From Bondarzewia mesenterica (Eukaryota > Basidiomycota > Agaricomycetes > Russulales > Bondarzewiaceae): a DNA stretch of 14,941 nucleotides. The DNA lies in assembly GCA_004802705.1 (NCBI GenBank), contig SGPL01000702.1:1-14941 (forward strand), in the 5' to 3' direction. A program made the translations under genes and the position numbers. This document shows positions 1,901-9,988 of the stretch, piece after piece; position 1 is the first letter of the stretch; the number at the start of each line of letters is the position of its first letter. Below the pieces are notes generated by a model. It ran no database searches. It was not told the DNA's origin and worked only from the letters and a program-made list of their open reading frames with translations.

Positions 1901-4900
1901 ATGGACTTCGTCAAAAGTGCACTCTCTCCGTTTGTAGGGTCCAGCAGTTCTCTTCAAGATACCTTGGTGAGCTGCACTGCGCCTCGCCGACTCGTGAACG
2001 AAACCTTGACCTTGGCTTTTGCACAGAAACTGGTCGTCATCGGAGGCACTGTCGAAACCGCCCGACGAGCCTCTGTATCCGCCTGGAGCGGTTTCGTAGA
2101 TTGTATGTCTTTGTGCGAGTTGTTCAAAGGGACGTCCGAGTGCTGACAATCTATTTCCAGCGTTCTTCCTTACAGCACATTTTAGTCAGGAGGATTACCC
2201 ATATGACTGGTAAGCCCGCATGCACCTCGCTCTCATGCACTTTGACTGAGCAGGAGCGACAGGTTGATGCACTGGCTTTCTAAGGTCTGTTGATGAACCG
2301 TCTGTCATTCATTTGTCTGAGTATTAAAGACCGTAACTCTCCCATCAGCAACCGGCATGGGGTCGCAGCCGAGAATTCGAGATTACGACACGGGCCATCA
2401 GCCGAAATGGAATGACACAATCGACGACCGGTGACTTGGAGGAGGAGGAGGAAGAGCTGGAGGACGAGGAGGAGGACGAGCTCGTGCACGGGCGGCGGAA
2501 GCGGAAGGTGGCGTTCATGCCGAGTCTTGGTGAGCCGAACAACAGACAGCGTTATGCGTTAAACGCCAATCAGCGCCTCAACGCGTTTCACAGACACGAC
2601 ACACACCATCTATTACCGAGGACATTGGCTGCGCGTGAGTAACAAGGCGCGTGCTCCCAAATTAGGAAATACTCACGCACCGCCTCGCAGATAACCAGGA
2701 CCAAAAAATTCCAGGAATATGGCCACCACTGTGCTTTGAAAATAAGGTAAAATATCCCGGATATCCCGGCGTTACGTATGTCTTTTTATTGACGTGGAAA
2801 ACAAGTGTCGTCGCTCGGAACAACGACATCCTCAAGAAACTCGTCTTGGAGGCAAAGCGTGAGTATGAGAAAGATGCCGAACATCGCGTGCACATTTTCA
2901 TGGCAGACACGTGAGTGCAAACTAGCCCCGTACGATCGCTTCCGCTTCTCACCACGGCCCGGTTCATCAGCACCTACGGATGTTGGAGATGGAACGGCGC
3001 ACGCCAGAAGCGTCCCATGAGCTCTATCGTTCTCGAGCCTGCTGTAAAGGAGATGCTTCTGGCGGATTGCAAGGACTTCTTGCGTTCCGAGGACTGGTCA
3101 GTGCGTTCCAATTCGATCCTTATGATGCAATGGTTCATTTTGCCCTATGTCCAGGTACGCTGAAAGAGGTCTGTCCAAGCTGTGCCACCGACGTCATTCG
3201 ACGCCCTAACCCCGTCCAACAGGAATTCCATTTCGCCGAGGTTACTTGTTGCATGGTGTTCCAGGCAGGCACGTAACTTTTGTGTTTGCTGTGACAAATG
3301 CCCGTTGACACTAGACTCATAGTGGCAAAACATCTCTCATCCATTCCATGGCCGGCGAACTTGGCCTTGACATCTATGTCGTTAGTCTGTCTTCAAAAGG
3401 GTGAGTTCTAGCACCGTCTCGAAATGGACCATTACGCCTCTGACGCGAAACAGTATGAGTGATAACACATTGACTACCCTTATGGGTAATGTCCCGTCAA
3501 GGTGGGTTGTGCCTTTTGACACGTGCCGTACCCAAGTGAATTGACGGTTCCGCAGATGCATTTTGCTCTTGGAAGACTTGGATGCTGCTTTCACTCGCTC
3601 CGTCAGTAGAGACTCTTCGTCTACGGGTACTCCCACGGCCACCGTGAAGACCGCGACAGAGGCGAATGATGGATCCACACTGAGTTTGAGTGGACTGCTG
3701 AACAGTCTAGATGGCGTCGCGGCAGCAGAGGGCCGGTGAGGCTTCTTTGAGATGGAGCGTCTATGATTATCCATCTAACACCGGTGACACAGACTCCTCT
3801 TCGCCACTACAAATCACATCGAGCGATTGGATCCCGCTCTGAGTCGCCCAGGTCGCATGGATGTTTGGGTAAACTTCAAGAATGCGACCAAATGGCAGGC
3901 GGAGGGCATCTTCAAATGCTTCTTCCCCTCCAAGCCCTCCGCCGTGTCCTCCGTGGAAGCCTCTCCGCCGCAGGACAACTCGCAGAAGAACATGCCCATC
4001 CCCAAGCGGAAGCAGACTTCGCATGCGGTTCCATTACTCGACGAAGCAGAAATATCTGAACTTGCCAAGCGCTTTGCAGATTCGATCCCAGAAGATGAAA
4101 TGAGTGTACGCCACTGTCATCGCCTTATCTCTCGACTTGTTGCTCACAAGCAGTGCAGGTTGCCAGTCTCCAGGGCTATCTCCTGAAGAACAAGACGCGG
4201 CCACGTGAATGTGTCGAGGAAGTTGCGGGCTGGTATGATTCACTATCTCATGTTCGTTATCCGACCTCGGGAACTTGACATCACCTTCAGGATCATCCAA
4301 GAGCGTGAGACGCGCATTCGACTGAAGAAAGAGAAAGAAGAGGTGAGTCATCCATTCATGCGATCTCCTCGAGGATTCGCTCCTGACGGACGCACGAATC
4401 AGCGCGAGGCCAAGGAGAAAAAGGAGGTAAGGAAGCGCTTTCCAGTTCCACGCGACTGACGCTCAATTGGCTATCATCCAAGGCCGAAGAGCAGGCACGT
4501 AAGGAGGTAAGTTTTTGACGCCTTGTCCACAAGCTGATCTCGAAATGATGATACGCTTTGCAGAAGGAGGAGCTCGCAGCTAAAGAAGTAAGTCTATCGG
4601 ACTTCTGAAGGACGCAGTGCAGCTCAATTTCTGACTGTCCCGCCGAAGAAAGAACAAGAGCTCCTGAAAGAAGTGAGTACGAATGATCAGCGCGTGGGCA
4701 TTACCATTCTAACGCCTACCTGAACCATCTCTTATTAGAAGCTTGAAAAGAAAGAGGCAAGAAAGAGGGCAAAGAAAGCAGCCCGCCCCGATGGGCCTCC
4801 TCCCGTCAACACGGAGATAATCGCGATGCCGCCACCGCCGCCGCCCCCAACCAGCACCTCCGGCGCCACACCAAGCACCCCGTTCACGGTAGAGCCCAGC

Positions 4901-5107
4901 AGCCCCGACAGCGATTCTGACAGCAGCTCTTCTGATGAAGACTCGCAGACAGAGGTCACCGCCAACGAGGCCGATGCCGAGGAGAGTGTGACTTCGGAAG
5001 GAGAGTCCGAGCGTCCATCTGATGAAAGTGCATCCCCCAATGGGGACGCTCAGGCTTCCGAAAAATGGGTCGCCGTGAAGGGACTACCAGAACCGTCGAG
5101 GCAATAG
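1901..5107 (+). CDS. BCS1: BCS1-like mitochondrial AAA ATPase (21 exons, 683 aa)
   Basis: Classical Bcs1 sits in the inner mitochondrial membrane and moves the folded Rieske protein into complex III. Exons: 1901-2102, 2161-2209, 2263-2284, 2349-2529, 2594-2634, 2691-2746, 2806-2910, 2971-3096, 3155-3168, 3223-3268, 3323-3400, 3454-3501, 3556-3735, 3793-4105, 4159-4232, 4291-4342, 4403-4426, 4483-4506, 4564-4587, 4649-4672, 4739-5107; the sum is 2052 nt, in frame throughout. A BCS1_N-type region (about 1-270) carries an acidic insert (about 120-136). The AAA core has Walker A GVPGSGKT (277-284), Walker B ILLLEDLD (325-332), sensor-1 TTN (388-390) and arginine fingers in SRPGRMD (400-406). A charged helix (about 515-580), a proline run and a Ser/Asp/Glu-rich tail follow, none typical of Bcs1. 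The family call is firm. Basidiomycetes carry several BCS1-like paralogues, so strict orthology and Rieske transport are not shown. Intron 10 is GC-AG. Confidence 0.88.
3269..3322 (+). other. Non-canonical GC-AG intron splitting the Walker A codon
   Basis: The 54-nt intron starts AG|GCACGT and ends CATAG|T. Joining AG to T makes the serine of GVPGSGKT, the exact AAA P-loop. The only GT-AG option in frame (3273-3314, 42 nt) would insert four residues, RHTH, into the P-loop. Conservation of the motif decides for GC-AG. A TTGAC branch-like site lies at 3305-3309. Confidence 0.85.
4403..4672 (+). other. Ladder of four 24-nt phase-0 microexons
   Basis: Exons 17-20 of the BCS1-like gene are each exactly 24 nt: 4403-4426 (REAKEKKE), 4483-4506 (AEEQARKE), 4564-4587 (KEELAAKE) and 4649-4672 (KEQELLKE). 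All flanking introns are phase 0 with canonical GT-AG ends and lengths of 60, 56, 57, 61 and 66 nt. Each exon ends in a Lys-Glu pair directly before the donor, as does the following repeat. The encoded units extend one continuous charged helix from exon 16 into exon 21. Confidence 0.85.
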
Positions 5108-5535
5108 GCGAACGGAAGATCGTCGTGATGTGACCAGTGACTCTTTACTTACGAGAGATTTCATGAGCGTTGACATGTTAATGGGGGTTTTCATGCCGTA
5201 GGATCTATTTTACGCTACACTCGATTATGGGCTTTTGGTACATACATAGATATACATCGATGTCTTGCAGTTCGGCGAGTGCACATATTTGCGAAAGCAG
5301 TGACTTTCACATCGATGTCTTGCAGTTCGGCGAGTGCACATATTTGCGAAAGCAGTGACTTTCCCGAATGACGCTGATCACGGAGATGGCCGCAACAGCT
5401 CCGAAAAGGGTACCTCGGGACCAAGCCCTTGCCTGTGATCATGTTTGCATTGAAAGAGCAGAGGTAGACATCCACAACGGAGAGGAGCACGTAATAAGAA
5501 GCGAAACCAGCACTACGGGAACATANAATTATCTT
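5108..5535. other. Intergenic region between convergent BCS1-like and DNM1 genes
   Basis: This holds the 3' ends of both genes. No gene was supported. The only structure seen is the 55-bp tandem duplication at 5254-5363. An N lies at 5526, ten bases beyond the DNM1 stop codon. No clear AATAAA signal was found for either gene. Confidence 0.6.
5254..5363. repeat. Perfect 55-bp tandem duplication
   Basis: Two identical adjacent copies occupy 5254-5308 and 5309-5363, each beginning ACATCGATGTCTTGCAG and ending GCAGTGACTTTC. No mismatch is visible between them, so the event is recent or recently homogenised. It could also be an assembly artefact, since the contig has N bases nearby. Confidence 0.95.
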
Positions 5536-8500
5536 CTATGTAGATTTCAGGCTAACTTCCGAAAGGGTTTTGAATGCCTCCTTGTATGCATCCAACAACG
5601 CCTTGACGCGCGCACGTTCCGCAACCAGGGCCTCGTCTTCGTTCAACAGGTCCGAAAAAAAGTTCCGGTTTGTACAGAGCCGAAACAAGACGGTTCTGCA
5701 CCTGTTGTGAGGTATGNTTCACGAGGAAGTGCATGACGGCCTTGGGTATGAGGTCTTGAATGCTCTGTCGCACGATGGAGAAGTAGGACGCGATGAGTGA
5801 TCGGATGAGGTTCGTCTCCATTTCTTCGCGCATGGTCAAATGTGTGTTGCCCTCGGCCGAGACCTGCTCCATGAAAGAATCATCAGCTCCATGATGCTTG
5901 GAATGTGATGGACAAGAGGGACAAGCTCACCGCTTCAATGTGTTTTCCGAGGCTCTTCATGTCGAAGGCCGCAGTGTTCCCATCCCGCGTTCCAGCCAGG
6001 AGGCCCGATTGCAGCGACGTATCAACACCTGATACATCCCGCCCCGAGGAGACCACCTGTCCCACAGCTGATCTCTCCATGCTGGGCCCGGAGATGGGCC
6101 CGGGGCCGTTCTGTCCAAAAAAGTAATTCAGGAAAGTCTCCCGGGCAGAAGCCGGGGACGCGCCCATCTGGGAGTTTGCGGTTGACGGTCGGGTGGAGTG
6201 CTGTTGCGGATGGTGATGATGGTGCGGTTTTGACGGTTTTCCGACGGTGCCTGCAGCCGACGAGGCTGTGGTACGTGAACGATCATGCACAGTCGACGAG
6301 ACAGAGCGCCCATCGCGGGGATGCCCAGATACGCTTGATGCATCTTCTGTTGACTCGTCATCCTCCTCATCCATTGAGGGCGCGCCGTTGATACTAGGTT
6401 CCGCAGAGGACGGCTAACACAGACCAGACCATGATTAACGGGCCATGGAAGATTGCAAGTACACGTTTGAGCTTACCCTTGGCGGAAAAATTTGTTTTGG
6501 GGTTGGCGTGTTTGACGCCTGAGCAGCATTCGCACTCCCAGAGATGAAAGTAGGGTGATTGACATTGATATATGCCTGCTGTATCTCGATCAAGCTTTGG
6601 GCATATTCCGACGTAGGTCCAAGGCGTTCACGCAAAAGTTCAGATACAACCTCGACAAGTTGCGCATGAAGGCGAGGGAACCGTTGCAGTTCCTGCATTG
6701 TTATTAATAACACAAATCAATGGTTCGAAGAAAAGCGTGAGACTCACGAAGCTTGTACAGTTGTGACAGATCTTGACAAGCTCCTCGTAGACCAGCTCCA
6801 CGCATCGCAGGCTCGGCGCCTCAAGCAATTTAATTTGGGGTTTGACGAGGAGGTCGAAAGCTATTTCAGGAACGAACAAACTCGGTCGTGGTCCTGTCGA
6901 ATTGCGAATAGCAGTCCGGATGTCCTGGTTCTCGAGATTCTGAGTTGAATCAATAGACGCCAAGGCAGTTCCGAATACATCATTGAAGATATAGTATATC
7001 CGGGCGCCACCAGAGAGTTCCTTCGTGGAGATATCAACGTTTGTGCCTTCAATCGAAGCCACAAAATCCCGCGCGAACTGCGTCATGAGGCGAAGGATAA
7101 GCGCTCCTTGCTAAATGAAAGTGGCAACAGTCAGTTGCATCTATCACGAAGGAAAAAACAAATGGAAACCATCTAACTTGATTTCTGTCGCCATAAATGG
7201 CAGCATCTCCAAATGAATTGAGTTCCTGCTGCGCCTGGCCCATTAGGGTGTTTAAACGGGCTTTCATATCCGGAAGCTTGTCCCGGATGTGATTAAGCAA
7301 GACCTTGTTCCAATGTTAGTACGACAAATTTAACTCGACGCAACGGCAGTTCCGCGATACCTGATTCAGGGTCTTCGCGAGATATTTCGTCCCATTTTTG
7401 TGGGCAATATTCCTGTATGCCGCATGAGTGCCGAAGAACTCCGCCTCGCTGTTTATTGCGTCCCTCATGCTCTTCTCCACGTTGATATCCTGTTGACTGC
7501 GATTGACCACGCCGATAAAACCCAATTTTAATGGGTAGATCCTTCCGGTGAGAATATCGAACGCATGTGTGCCTGCGTCCATGAGGTCAAGTTTTGTGAG
7601 AATTCCGATCGTTCTTCGGCCCTGTGGATCGACGGAACGGGCAAGTTTGAGAGATTCGGAGTTCGCGAGATCGACATTAGCTGCCGATACGGCGAGAATG
7701 ACGCTGCACACTTGTCAGCCATCGTGTATGCGACATGCAGATCAGGCGATGCTAACCAGTTGGGTCTAGAGATATAGTCCACGACCAAACCGCGAATCTG
7801 ACGTTCGATATCTGTAGGTTGGTCGCCCACAGGGATCTGTCAAGCACGATGCCACACGTCGATTCAACTCAACCAACCAAGCCCACAGCCTAAAGACCCA
7901 ACGACGTACCTTCGTCAAACCAGGCAAATCAACCAACGTCAAGTCCAGCACATTTGGACTATATATCCTCAAATTGATAGGCAACTTGCTGATACCCTTA
8001 TTCTGTCCGGCAACACGGAACGTCTCCTGCTCGATCTCTTTGCGAATCTCGTTGAAGTCGGTAAAGCGTTTGTCAATATGCAAGAACTGGCCCCATTCCG
8101 TATATGTTGGTTCTGGTGCGCCGGGGGCTGTTTCCGGGACGGGCGTGTGGATAAGCTGGAGGACGAGTGGACGACGAGTGACGATGCCTTGGCCACGGGG
8201 AAGGAAATCACGGCCGACGATACTAAGGCAGGTAGTTGGGTCGAAAAAAGGGAATATGATGTTAATTGTGGTAAGTCACGTACTTCTCGAGGACACTGGA
8301 TTTTCCTGCAGACTGACTGCCGACCTGCCCAACGACGTCGAGCCGTCAGACGACCGATGCAAAACAACCAACAAAAAAGCAATAAAAACACGCACAACAG
8401 CCAACTGCGGCATATCCAGTTCTCCACCTAGTCCCCCGTTTCAATACAGGTAGTCACATGGCGGGAAAAGTGCACGCCTACAACTCACCAAGATTGCTGA

Positions 8501-8874: not shown

Positions 8875-9988
8875 TTAGATGGCCTTGCTCTTAACGAGCT
8901 CTGTATGTGCGCGACACATTAGTTCACTTCGCTAACAGAGGAGATGGAAATTATACGCACGCTCGACCTCGGAGACGGCCCATGCGAGTACTTCCCTCTG
9001 CGTCTTATCGTCCTGGAGGTTTTTGAGCACATTGTCAACGACAGTCTTGACGAGCTGAGCCTGCTCCTGCTCCTTCTCCTGCTGCTCGTAGCGAACCCAG
9101 CTGTCTAGCACAGCCTTGACCTCGGACGCGAGCGCGACACGTTGACGCTGGACGAAGATATCCGACTCGAGCGTAGCAGTCTCCTACAAATATTTCAAAA
9201 AACACGACGTTAAGCGTTCAGATGATATGAATGCCTTCAAGCACGCACCTTGGAGACGGCGAAAAGACCCTGGGTCAAGGAGACGACATCCTTCATCTGG
9301 TTGACGGACTCGATGCGGTCCTTGACGGCCTGAGTGTGCTCAGTGCGAGACTTGTCGAGGACGCTCTTGATGCGGTTGATATGTCCCTCCGCCCATTCCT
9401 TGTACGGCGTCCTGATGATCTACACATGTTCAAACTTGTCAATATACTACCAACAACCTTCCATGCAATGCACAGTTTTACAACCCGGCCAGCCATCTAG
9501 CACAACACAGATACAAATGGCACAGGACGCACCTTCGCGATGTAGGTGAAGAGGATCAAGTAGCCGACAGCGACGACAGTCTCCTCGTTCATAACATACA
9601 GTTCCTGGGAGATGGCAGCAGCGATGAGGCCGCTCCCAAGGATGGCAGAGCCAGTCTTCGTGATGAGGTTGGGGGACGATGGGAGCTTGTTGATGACCTC
9701 CGACGCACGCTCGGCGGGGGGCGGGGGGGTAGACATCGCGCGACTGCATCCATCCCACATCACATCAGCCAGTCAGATCCCAACGTCCTGACATCCCAAA
9801 TAAGACCACACGTACGCATGCATGAGTTGAGAGACGGCTGCGACCGCCTGCGGGCGAACGCGCGACGCTGGACGAAACAATTCCTTTAGCCCACCTCCAG
9901 CTTGAAACAGACAAAGCGGCATTCAAATAAAAGGAATTAAATACGGACCGGACGCCCTGAGGGTGTTGACGGCAACTCTGGAGGCCAT
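8875..9988 (-). CDS. ATP4: F1Fo ATP synthase subunit b (Atp4), mitochondrial, 6 exons, 251 aa
   Basis: Atp4 is the peripheral stalk (stator) subunit that holds F1 to the membrane Fo part of complex V. Exons on -: 9988-9949, 9900-9816, 9743-9533, 9419-9249, 9183-8961, 8900-8875; total 756 nt. The first ~43 residues, rich in Arg, Val and Ala and lacking acids apart from one Glu, look like a mitochondrial targeting peptide. The mature part begins near STPPPPAERASEVINKLPSS. Two membrane helices follow (about 62-82 and 92-110), then the matrix helix IIRTPYKEWAEGHINRIKSV and a long coiled stalk with AVLDSWVRYEQQEKEQEQAQ. The last exon is only 26 nt and gives the C-terminus VEQLVKSKAI, similar to the yeast end; reading straight on instead gives VERAYNFHLLC and a stop. 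Length is close to the yeast precursor (244). Upstream neighbour on the same strand is the BRCT-like gene. Confidence 0.93.

What the first reader, a model, noticed from the sequence alone, without database searches (positions are those of the whole stretch)
4403..4672. Four consecutive 24-nt microexons form a modular helix ladder in a BCS1-like ATPase
Exons 17-20 are all exactly 24 nt, all phase 0, spaced 80, 81 and 85 nt apart, and each encodes eight charged residues ending in Lys-Glu. Any subset could be skipped without a frame shift, changing the length of the C-terminal helix in eight-residue steps. The regular spacing suggests either duplication of an exon-intron unit or repeated intron insertion into a repetitive charged-helix sequence. 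I do not know of this arrangement in BCS1 proteins.
Basis: partly seen in the sequence, partly recalled or inferred. Interest (0 to 1): 0.75.

Follow-up and report, generated by a model that had tools for sequence, protein, structure and literature searches.

The report
Conserved four-microexon ladder in mushrooms
In this mushroom gene a charged rod in the protein is built from four consecutive tiny exons of exactly 24 bases each, and the same four-step rod appears in most of the related mushroom proteins examined, so it is a real and probably old gene design that is more likely always spliced in than switchable.

Summary
Exons at 4403-4426, 4483-4506, 4564-4587 and 4649-4672 are each 24 nt, phase 0, with GT-AG introns, spaced 80, 81 and 85 nt. 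They are exons 18-21 of 22 in a BCS1-like AAA ATPase of Bondarzewia mesenterica. None of 300 Markov resamples of the window gives even two consecutive equal-length exons.

The new result is conservation. Of the 120 homologues listed, 85 carry exactly 32 residues (4 x 8) there, and units 1-3 are recognisable by position. In 11 of the 120 gene models the helix breaks at a unit border into Val (= GT...); together they mark all five borders. Of 23 environmental sequences that look spliced, 20 keep 4 x 8. AlphaFold draws one continuous helix through the units.

Best reading: an old, constitutively spliced exon-intron array encoding a single-helix rod beyond the AAA lid. Regulated skipping is unproven; published data on coding-exon skipping in a mushroom are mixed. 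Duplication as the origin is favoured but unproven; the introns keep no similarity.

The parts
1901..5107 (+). BCS1-like AAA ATPase gene, 22 exons, CDS 1992 nt, 663 aa
   Evidence: Spliced model without internal stop, co-linear with P0001 and P0003; P0003 hits PF08740, PF00004 and PF25426 above cut-off
4291..4342 (+). Exon 17: end of the AAA lid and start of the long helix ([17 protein letters not shown])
4343..4402 (+). Intron 17, 60 nt, GTGAGT..CAG; retention stays open (20 codons)
4403..4426 (+). Microexon 18, unit 1, REAKEKKE, 24 nt, phase 0
   Evidence: 73 of 82 proteins passing a strict four-unit filter have the identical 8-mer
4427..4482 (+). Intron 18, 56 nt, GTAAGG..AAG; retention gives an in-frame stop
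4483..4506 (+). Microexon 19, unit 2, AEEQARKE, 24 nt, phase 0
4507..4563 (+). Intron 19, 57 nt, GTAAGT..CAG; retention gives an in-frame stop
4564..4587 (+). Microexon 20, unit 3, KEELAAKE, 24 nt, phase 0
4588..4648 (+). Intron 20, 61 nt, GTAAGT..AAG; retention gives an in-frame stop
4649..4672 (+). Microexon 21, unit 4, KEQELLKE, 24 nt, phase 0
4673..4738 (+). Intron 21, 66 nt, GTGAGT..TAG; retention gives an in-frame stop
4739..5107 (+). Exon 22: helix end ([13 protein letters not shown]), Pro- and acidic Ser-rich tail, conserved EKWVAVK near the C-terminus, stop codon

Best explanation
The four 24-nt exons are an old exon-intron array in a BCS1-like AAA ATPase of mushroom-forming fungi. 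Each exon adds eight residues to one long, highly charged alpha helix that leaves the AAA lid and carries a presumably disordered acidic tail with a conserved EKWVAVK motif near its end. The exons are most likely spliced in constitutively, each short intron being recognised as a unit (inferred). The array then fixes the rod at 32 residues, about 48 angstrom at 1.5 angstrom per residue (calculated from textbook helix geometry). Shown: exon structure in this window, conservation of the four units in proteins, helix prediction. Inferred: constitutive inclusion, rod function, and origin by duplication of one exon-intron unit before the sampled lineages diverged. The confidence below is for the constitutive rod; origin is weighed apart under the rivals.
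For: Exact exon structure beyond chance. Of the 120 homologues listed, 85 have exactly 4 x 8 residues; 8 have 24, 3 have 40, 1 has 8, 11 have other lengths, 11 are gene models that break at a unit border, 1 is truncated. Units 1, 2 and 3 resemble their own position in other species best in 82, 69 and 77 of 82. All 11 broken models show Val at a border, the phase-0 reading of GT; together they mark all five borders, and 9 of 11 new models of the third search do the same. Of 23 environmental-only sequences, 20 keep 4 x 8; 9 of the 20 of the first search lie on contigs shorter than the 3,207 nt that the intron-bearing gene spans here. One continuous predicted helix, residues 484-556 of P0001 and 487-568 of P0003, spans the units. 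Opposite charges at i, i+4: consensus 30 against 15.6 in shuffles (0 of 2000), window 20 against 13.4 (p 0.012). Mean donor score of the five ladder introns is 7.8 against 5.9 for the other 16.
Against: No transcript of this species was examined. They are 90% clusters and could hide a skipped isoform. Unit 4 resembles its own position best in only 28 of 82. Heterobasidion (P0002, 82% identical) has one unit in its gene model, and 8 of 120 have three. Among the 19 new proteins of the second search many are off the 8-residue register, including Schizophyllum, Coprinopsis, Leucocoprinus, Pluteus and Amanita. Mean confidence of both AlphaFold models is low, 54 and 47. Mean acceptor score of the ladder introns is lower than that of the others, 3.5 against 4.1, with introns 18, 20 and 21 weak. 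Splice-junction analysis in S. commune counts 1,527 coding exon-skipping events.
Confidence: 0.72

Rival explanations
1. Regulated modular ladder: cells skip 0-4 microexons to tune the helix length in 8-residue steps.
For: All four exons are frame-neutral. Whole-unit length variants exist among related gene models: 24 residues in 8, 40 in 3 and 8 in 1 of 120. Three models of Boletales (P0025, P0084, P0097; order recalled) appear to lack the third unit while keeping a Gln-marked fourth. S. commune junction data count 1,527 coding exon-skipping events.
Against: 20 of 20 environmental-only sequences of the first search have four units. In assembled transcripts of S. commune exon skipping is 1% of coding events. 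The variants come from gene models, which often fail in this region, and 11 of 120 have lengths that are not whole-unit variants.
Confidence: 0.15
2. On origin: repeated intron insertion at one fixed point of a pre-existing 24-nt coding repeat, rather than duplication of an exon-intron unit. This can be true together with the best explanation's rod.
For: Introns 17-21 share no similarity beyond shuffles (fraction of shuffles reaching the score 0.08-0.94). Introns were gained massively in an amylase gene transferred to basidiomycetes (PMC3584928, passages read). Lys-Glu repeats offer many AG-purine sites.
Against: Five introns placed at random among 41 codon junctions would be evenly spaced in 190 of 749,398 ways, before counting equal phase; a site-specific insertion would escape this argument. 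Loss of intron similarity is expected after a long time, so it does not separate the two models.
Confidence: 0.35
3. Gene-prediction artefact: the region is intronic or one retained exon, and the small exons are not used.
For: No transcript of this species was examined.
Against: In-frame stops in four of the five introns; the spliced 4 x 8 form is kept in 85 of 120 homologues, 20 of them environmental sequences without introns; 0 of 300 resamples.
Confidence: 0.03

Closest known systems
Fibrillar collagen genes with serial 54-bp exons (recalled, no call)
   Same: Many consecutive in-phase exons of equal length, each coding a whole number of protein repeat steps.
   Different: Longer exons, Gly-X-Y triple helix, animal genes; here 24-nt exons, introns of 56-66 nt, a predicted single charged helix, fungi.
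Schistosome micro-exon genes (MEG; PMC10526429, abstract and outline seen)
   Same: Serial very short exons interspersed with introns.
   Different: By that abstract MEG exons vary from 3 to 81 bp, introns reach 5 kbp and products are secreted and highly variable; here introns are short, the exon length is fixed and the protein is a conserved AAA ATPase.
Microexons in Phanerochaete P450 genes (PMC1184071, passages) and in Trichoderma Xlr2 (PMC11121469, passages)
   Same: Fungal microexons; in the P450 genes also with small introns of 45-55 bp.
   Different: Scattered or single microexons; the passages seen describe no array of equal-length exons.
Mitochondrial chaperone Bcs1 (6ukp, 6sh3, 9gs2)
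   Same: BCS1_N and AAA core; E 1e-54 to 1e-55 with P0003.
   Different: The match ends at residues 410-412 of P0003 and does not reach the helix tail; it is not shown that this protein moves the Rieske protein.

Membership tests
BCS1-like AAA ATPases | BCS1_N, AAA and BCS1-type lid domains | tested here: met
   P0003: PF08740 158.6 bits, PF00004 60.1, PF25426 55.5; P0001: 155.7, 46.8, 54.5, all over cut-off. In the window's own DNA PF08740 scores 35.9 bits, over cut-off; single open frames scored below cut-off
BCS1-like AAA ATPases | Walker A motif in the window's own gene | tested here: met
   GVPGSGKTS is read when the GC-AG intron 3269-3322 is used; the public model P0001 lacks its first half
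Bcs1 proper (Rieske protein translocase) | Orthology to yeast or human Bcs1 and mitochondrial function | tested here: inconclusive
   Best PDB relatives are Bcs1, but the genome has BCS1_N matches on four other contigs; no tree was built
Microexon array | Consecutive exons of at most 30 nt (definition from the PMC8042270 abstract in the listing) | tested here: met
   Four exons of 24 nt
Microexon array | Inclusion in mature mRNA | tested here: inconclusive
   Supported indirectly by 20 of 23 environmental-only sequences; no RNA of this species
Single alpha helix (charged) | Continuous helix with opposite charges at i, i+4 and few apolar residues (criteria recalled) | tested here: met
   prediction only
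Single alpha helix (charged) | Stable and monomeric in solution | not testable with these tools
   needs circular dichroism or SAXS
Schistosome micro-exon genes | Short exons with long introns | tested here: not met
   All 21 introns are 53-66 nt
Schistosome micro-exon genes | Secreted, variable product | not tested
   The product is a BCS1-like AAA ATPase; no secretion test was run

The most novel reading that the evidence does not exclude
The ladder works as a genetic ruler: one microexon equals one fixed length and angle step (8 residues, about 12 angstrom, about 80 degrees) of rods projecting from a BCS1-like AAA ring, and both evolution (lineages with 3, 4 or 5 units) and perhaps regulated splicing set the rod length by whole exons.
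Probability: 0.15. Interest if true: 0.75.

Novelty: new variant of a known kind. Interest (0 to 1): 0.45.

Why it matters
Equal-length exon arrays are known to me mainly from animal structural proteins (recalled). One built of 24-nt exons and kept across several lineages of mushroom-forming fungi gives a natural test of exon duplication against intron insertion, and of how a spliceosome handles serial microexons between very short introns. It also points to a practical problem: public gene models of this protein often break exactly here (11 of the 120 in the first list; 9 of the 11 new models of the third search), so those database C-termini are probably wrong.

Tried and rejected
Intron-to-intron similarity as proof of duplication: nothing clear above shuffles. 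Shared bases between the window's four exons (8 to 14 of 24) were not informative. Paralogues in the same genome as witnesses of the ladder: C21 seems to have one intron in its tail, and C137, C552 and C240 show no ladder in the stretches displayed; this was read by eye from three-frame displays. Genomic DNA of relatives: genome contigs and viral contigs gave no confirmed relative, so intron positions in relatives rest on breaks in protein models. The first spliced model had exon 4 nine bases too long (searches used it); it was corrected, which does not touch the ladder. The automatic unit counters misparsed some tails; the counts given come from lists set by hand and checked by script, where one tail (P0099) had no script anchor and was placed by eye. 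Literature searches for this array found none (listings only, except the papers cited with passages or abstracts). Each structure prediction used part of the homologues: 60 and 52 of the 120.

Full report
What is there. The window is contig C664 of a 33.1-Mb assembly. Its protein matches EW146_g9003 of Bondarzewia mesenterica (P0001, 97% identity). The gene has 22 exons between 1901 and 5107 and codes for 663 residues. The four exons of the finding are exons 18-21. Each is 24 nt and phase 0, with GT-AG introns of 60, 56, 57, 61 and 66 nt around and between them. Their starts lie 80, 81 and 85 nt apart, as reported. Two further very small exons were found, exon 4 (22 nt) and exon 10 (14 nt), so the gene is rich in introns throughout.

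Is it more than chance? A scan for runs of equal-length exons with strict donors finds a chain of two or more in the window only at 24 nt, where it is four long. None of 300 first-order Markov resamples (one strand) reaches two at any length from 9 to 60. Nine other own-genome loci, all AAA-related and so not a random sample (66,986 bases counting both strands), reach at most one. Reading through introns 18-21 meets a stop in each; intron 17 stays open.

Conservation. The first protein search listed the best 120 of 2410 homologues. Between the end of exon 17 and the start of exon 22, 85 of the 120 have exactly 32 residues, 20 of them from environmental sources only. The rest: eight have 24 residues, three 40, one 8 (Heterobasidion), eleven other lengths, eleven are models that break at a unit border, and one is truncated. 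Eighty-two proteins (of the 139 then held) passed a strict filter for four units. In these, unit 1 is REAKEKKE in 73. Units 1, 2 and 3 resemble their own position in other species best in 82, 69 and 77 of 82; unit 4 only in 28, as units 3 and 4 are nearly alike. The second search added 19 proteins, of which several (Schizophyllum, Coprinopsis, Leucocoprinus, Pluteus, Amanita) are off the 8-residue register. So the four-step form is common in the lists seen but not universal, and lists capped at 120 do not show the more distant fungi. Orders and families are assigned from recalled taxonomy of the species names.

Intron positions in relatives. No genomic DNA of relatives could be fetched. Protein models give an indirect view. 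A phase-0 intron begins with GT, which reads as Val. In eleven of the 120 models the charged helix breaks at a unit border into Val: after exon 17 (P0055, P0079, P0082, P0085, P0119), after unit 1 (P0094), after unit 2 (P0111), after unit 3 (P0055, P0095, P0110) and after the last unit (P0092, P0098); P0085 also breaks after unit 3, into Ala. Of the eleven new proteins of the third search, all from Lactarius, Russula or Lactifluus, nine show Val at such a border (P0140-P0142, P0144-P0148, P0150; P0142 and P0150 with small differences in the residues before it), P0143 ends there otherwise, and P0149 ends earlier. This supports introns at all five borders in several families. It is inference from errors, not a reading of DNA.

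Are the exons used? Twenty proteins of the first search come only from environmental sources (lgn, jgi) and have open frames of 608-707 residues. Nine of them lie on contigs shorter than 3,207 bp, the span of the intron-bearing gene here. They are therefore probably spliced RNA; this is inference, since the tools do not say so. All 20 contain exactly four units. Three more from the second search do not clearly do so: P0136 has 38 and P0138 37 residues, and P0134 has 32 or 37 depending on where the end is set, with unusual units. That gives 20 of 23. P0008 is closest to Lactarius models that break in the ladder, and it spans all four units. Clusters at 90% identity may hide skipped forms. [quoted passage not shown]

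The protein. P0003 carries BCS1_N, AAA and BCS1-lid domains above cut-off, and its best solved relatives are Bcs1 structures, whose match ends at residues 410-412. AlphaFold models of P0001 and P0003, from alignments of 60 and 52 sequences, show one unbroken helix, residues 484-556 and 487-568, running from the lid through the units (512-543 and 515-546). In P0001 confidence by blocks of ten is 83-94 from 481 to 530, then 78 and 71 to 550, and 54 for 551-560; in P0003 it is 76-84 from 481 to 550. Overall confidence is low, 54 and 47. The tail is rich in opposite charges at i, i+4. This is what a single charged helix looks like (family knowledge, recalled). Bcs1 is a homo-heptamer (PMC10567702, start of abstract in the listing), so seven such rods could stand out from a ring; this is speculation for this protein.

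Splice signals. By a weight matrix from the other 16 introns the ladder's donors score higher (mean 7.8 against 5.9) and its acceptors somewhat lower (3.5 against 4.1; introns 18, 20 and 21 are the weak ones). This neither proves nor excludes skipping.

Origin. Random placement of five introns among 41 codon junctions gives equal spacing in 190 of 749,398 ways. This favours either duplication of one exon-intron unit or insertion at one fixed point of an existing 24-nt repeat. The introns keep no similarity, and massive intron gain is on record for a gene transferred to basidiomycetes (PMC3584928, passages). I favour duplication but cannot exclude insertion. Paralogues in the genome do not show the ladder in the stretches displayed (read by eye).

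Verdict. The proposed use as a skippable ladder is not supported by what I could see, though it is not excluded. It is a new variant of a known kind: a conserved equal-length microexon array in fungi.

Noticed in passing
window 3155-3322: Exon 10 is only 14 nt, and the intron at 3269-3322 needs a GC-AG reading to give the Walker A motif; the public model P0001 reads otherwise here and lacks part of the motif.
   Followed up: partly
window 2263-2284: Exon 4 is a 22-nt microexon that gives the conserved YPYDWLMHW.
   Followed up: yes
window 5254-5363: Perfect 55-bp tandem duplication just downstream of the gene.
   Followed up: no
window about 6640-8275, minus strand: Pieces of a dynamin-family gene (PF00350, PF01031).
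   Followed up: no
window about 8932-9772, minus strand: Pieces of a mitochondrial ATP synthase B chain gene (PF05405).
   Followed up: no
P0140-P0150: Lactarius, Russula and Lactifluus gene models of this protein: 9 of 11 read into Val at a border of the microexon ladder, so their database C-termini are probably wrong.
   Followed up: partly
P0098, P0100, P0102, P0109, P0116: Lentinula models carry five or more 8-residue units, a possible recent unit duplication.
   Followed up: no
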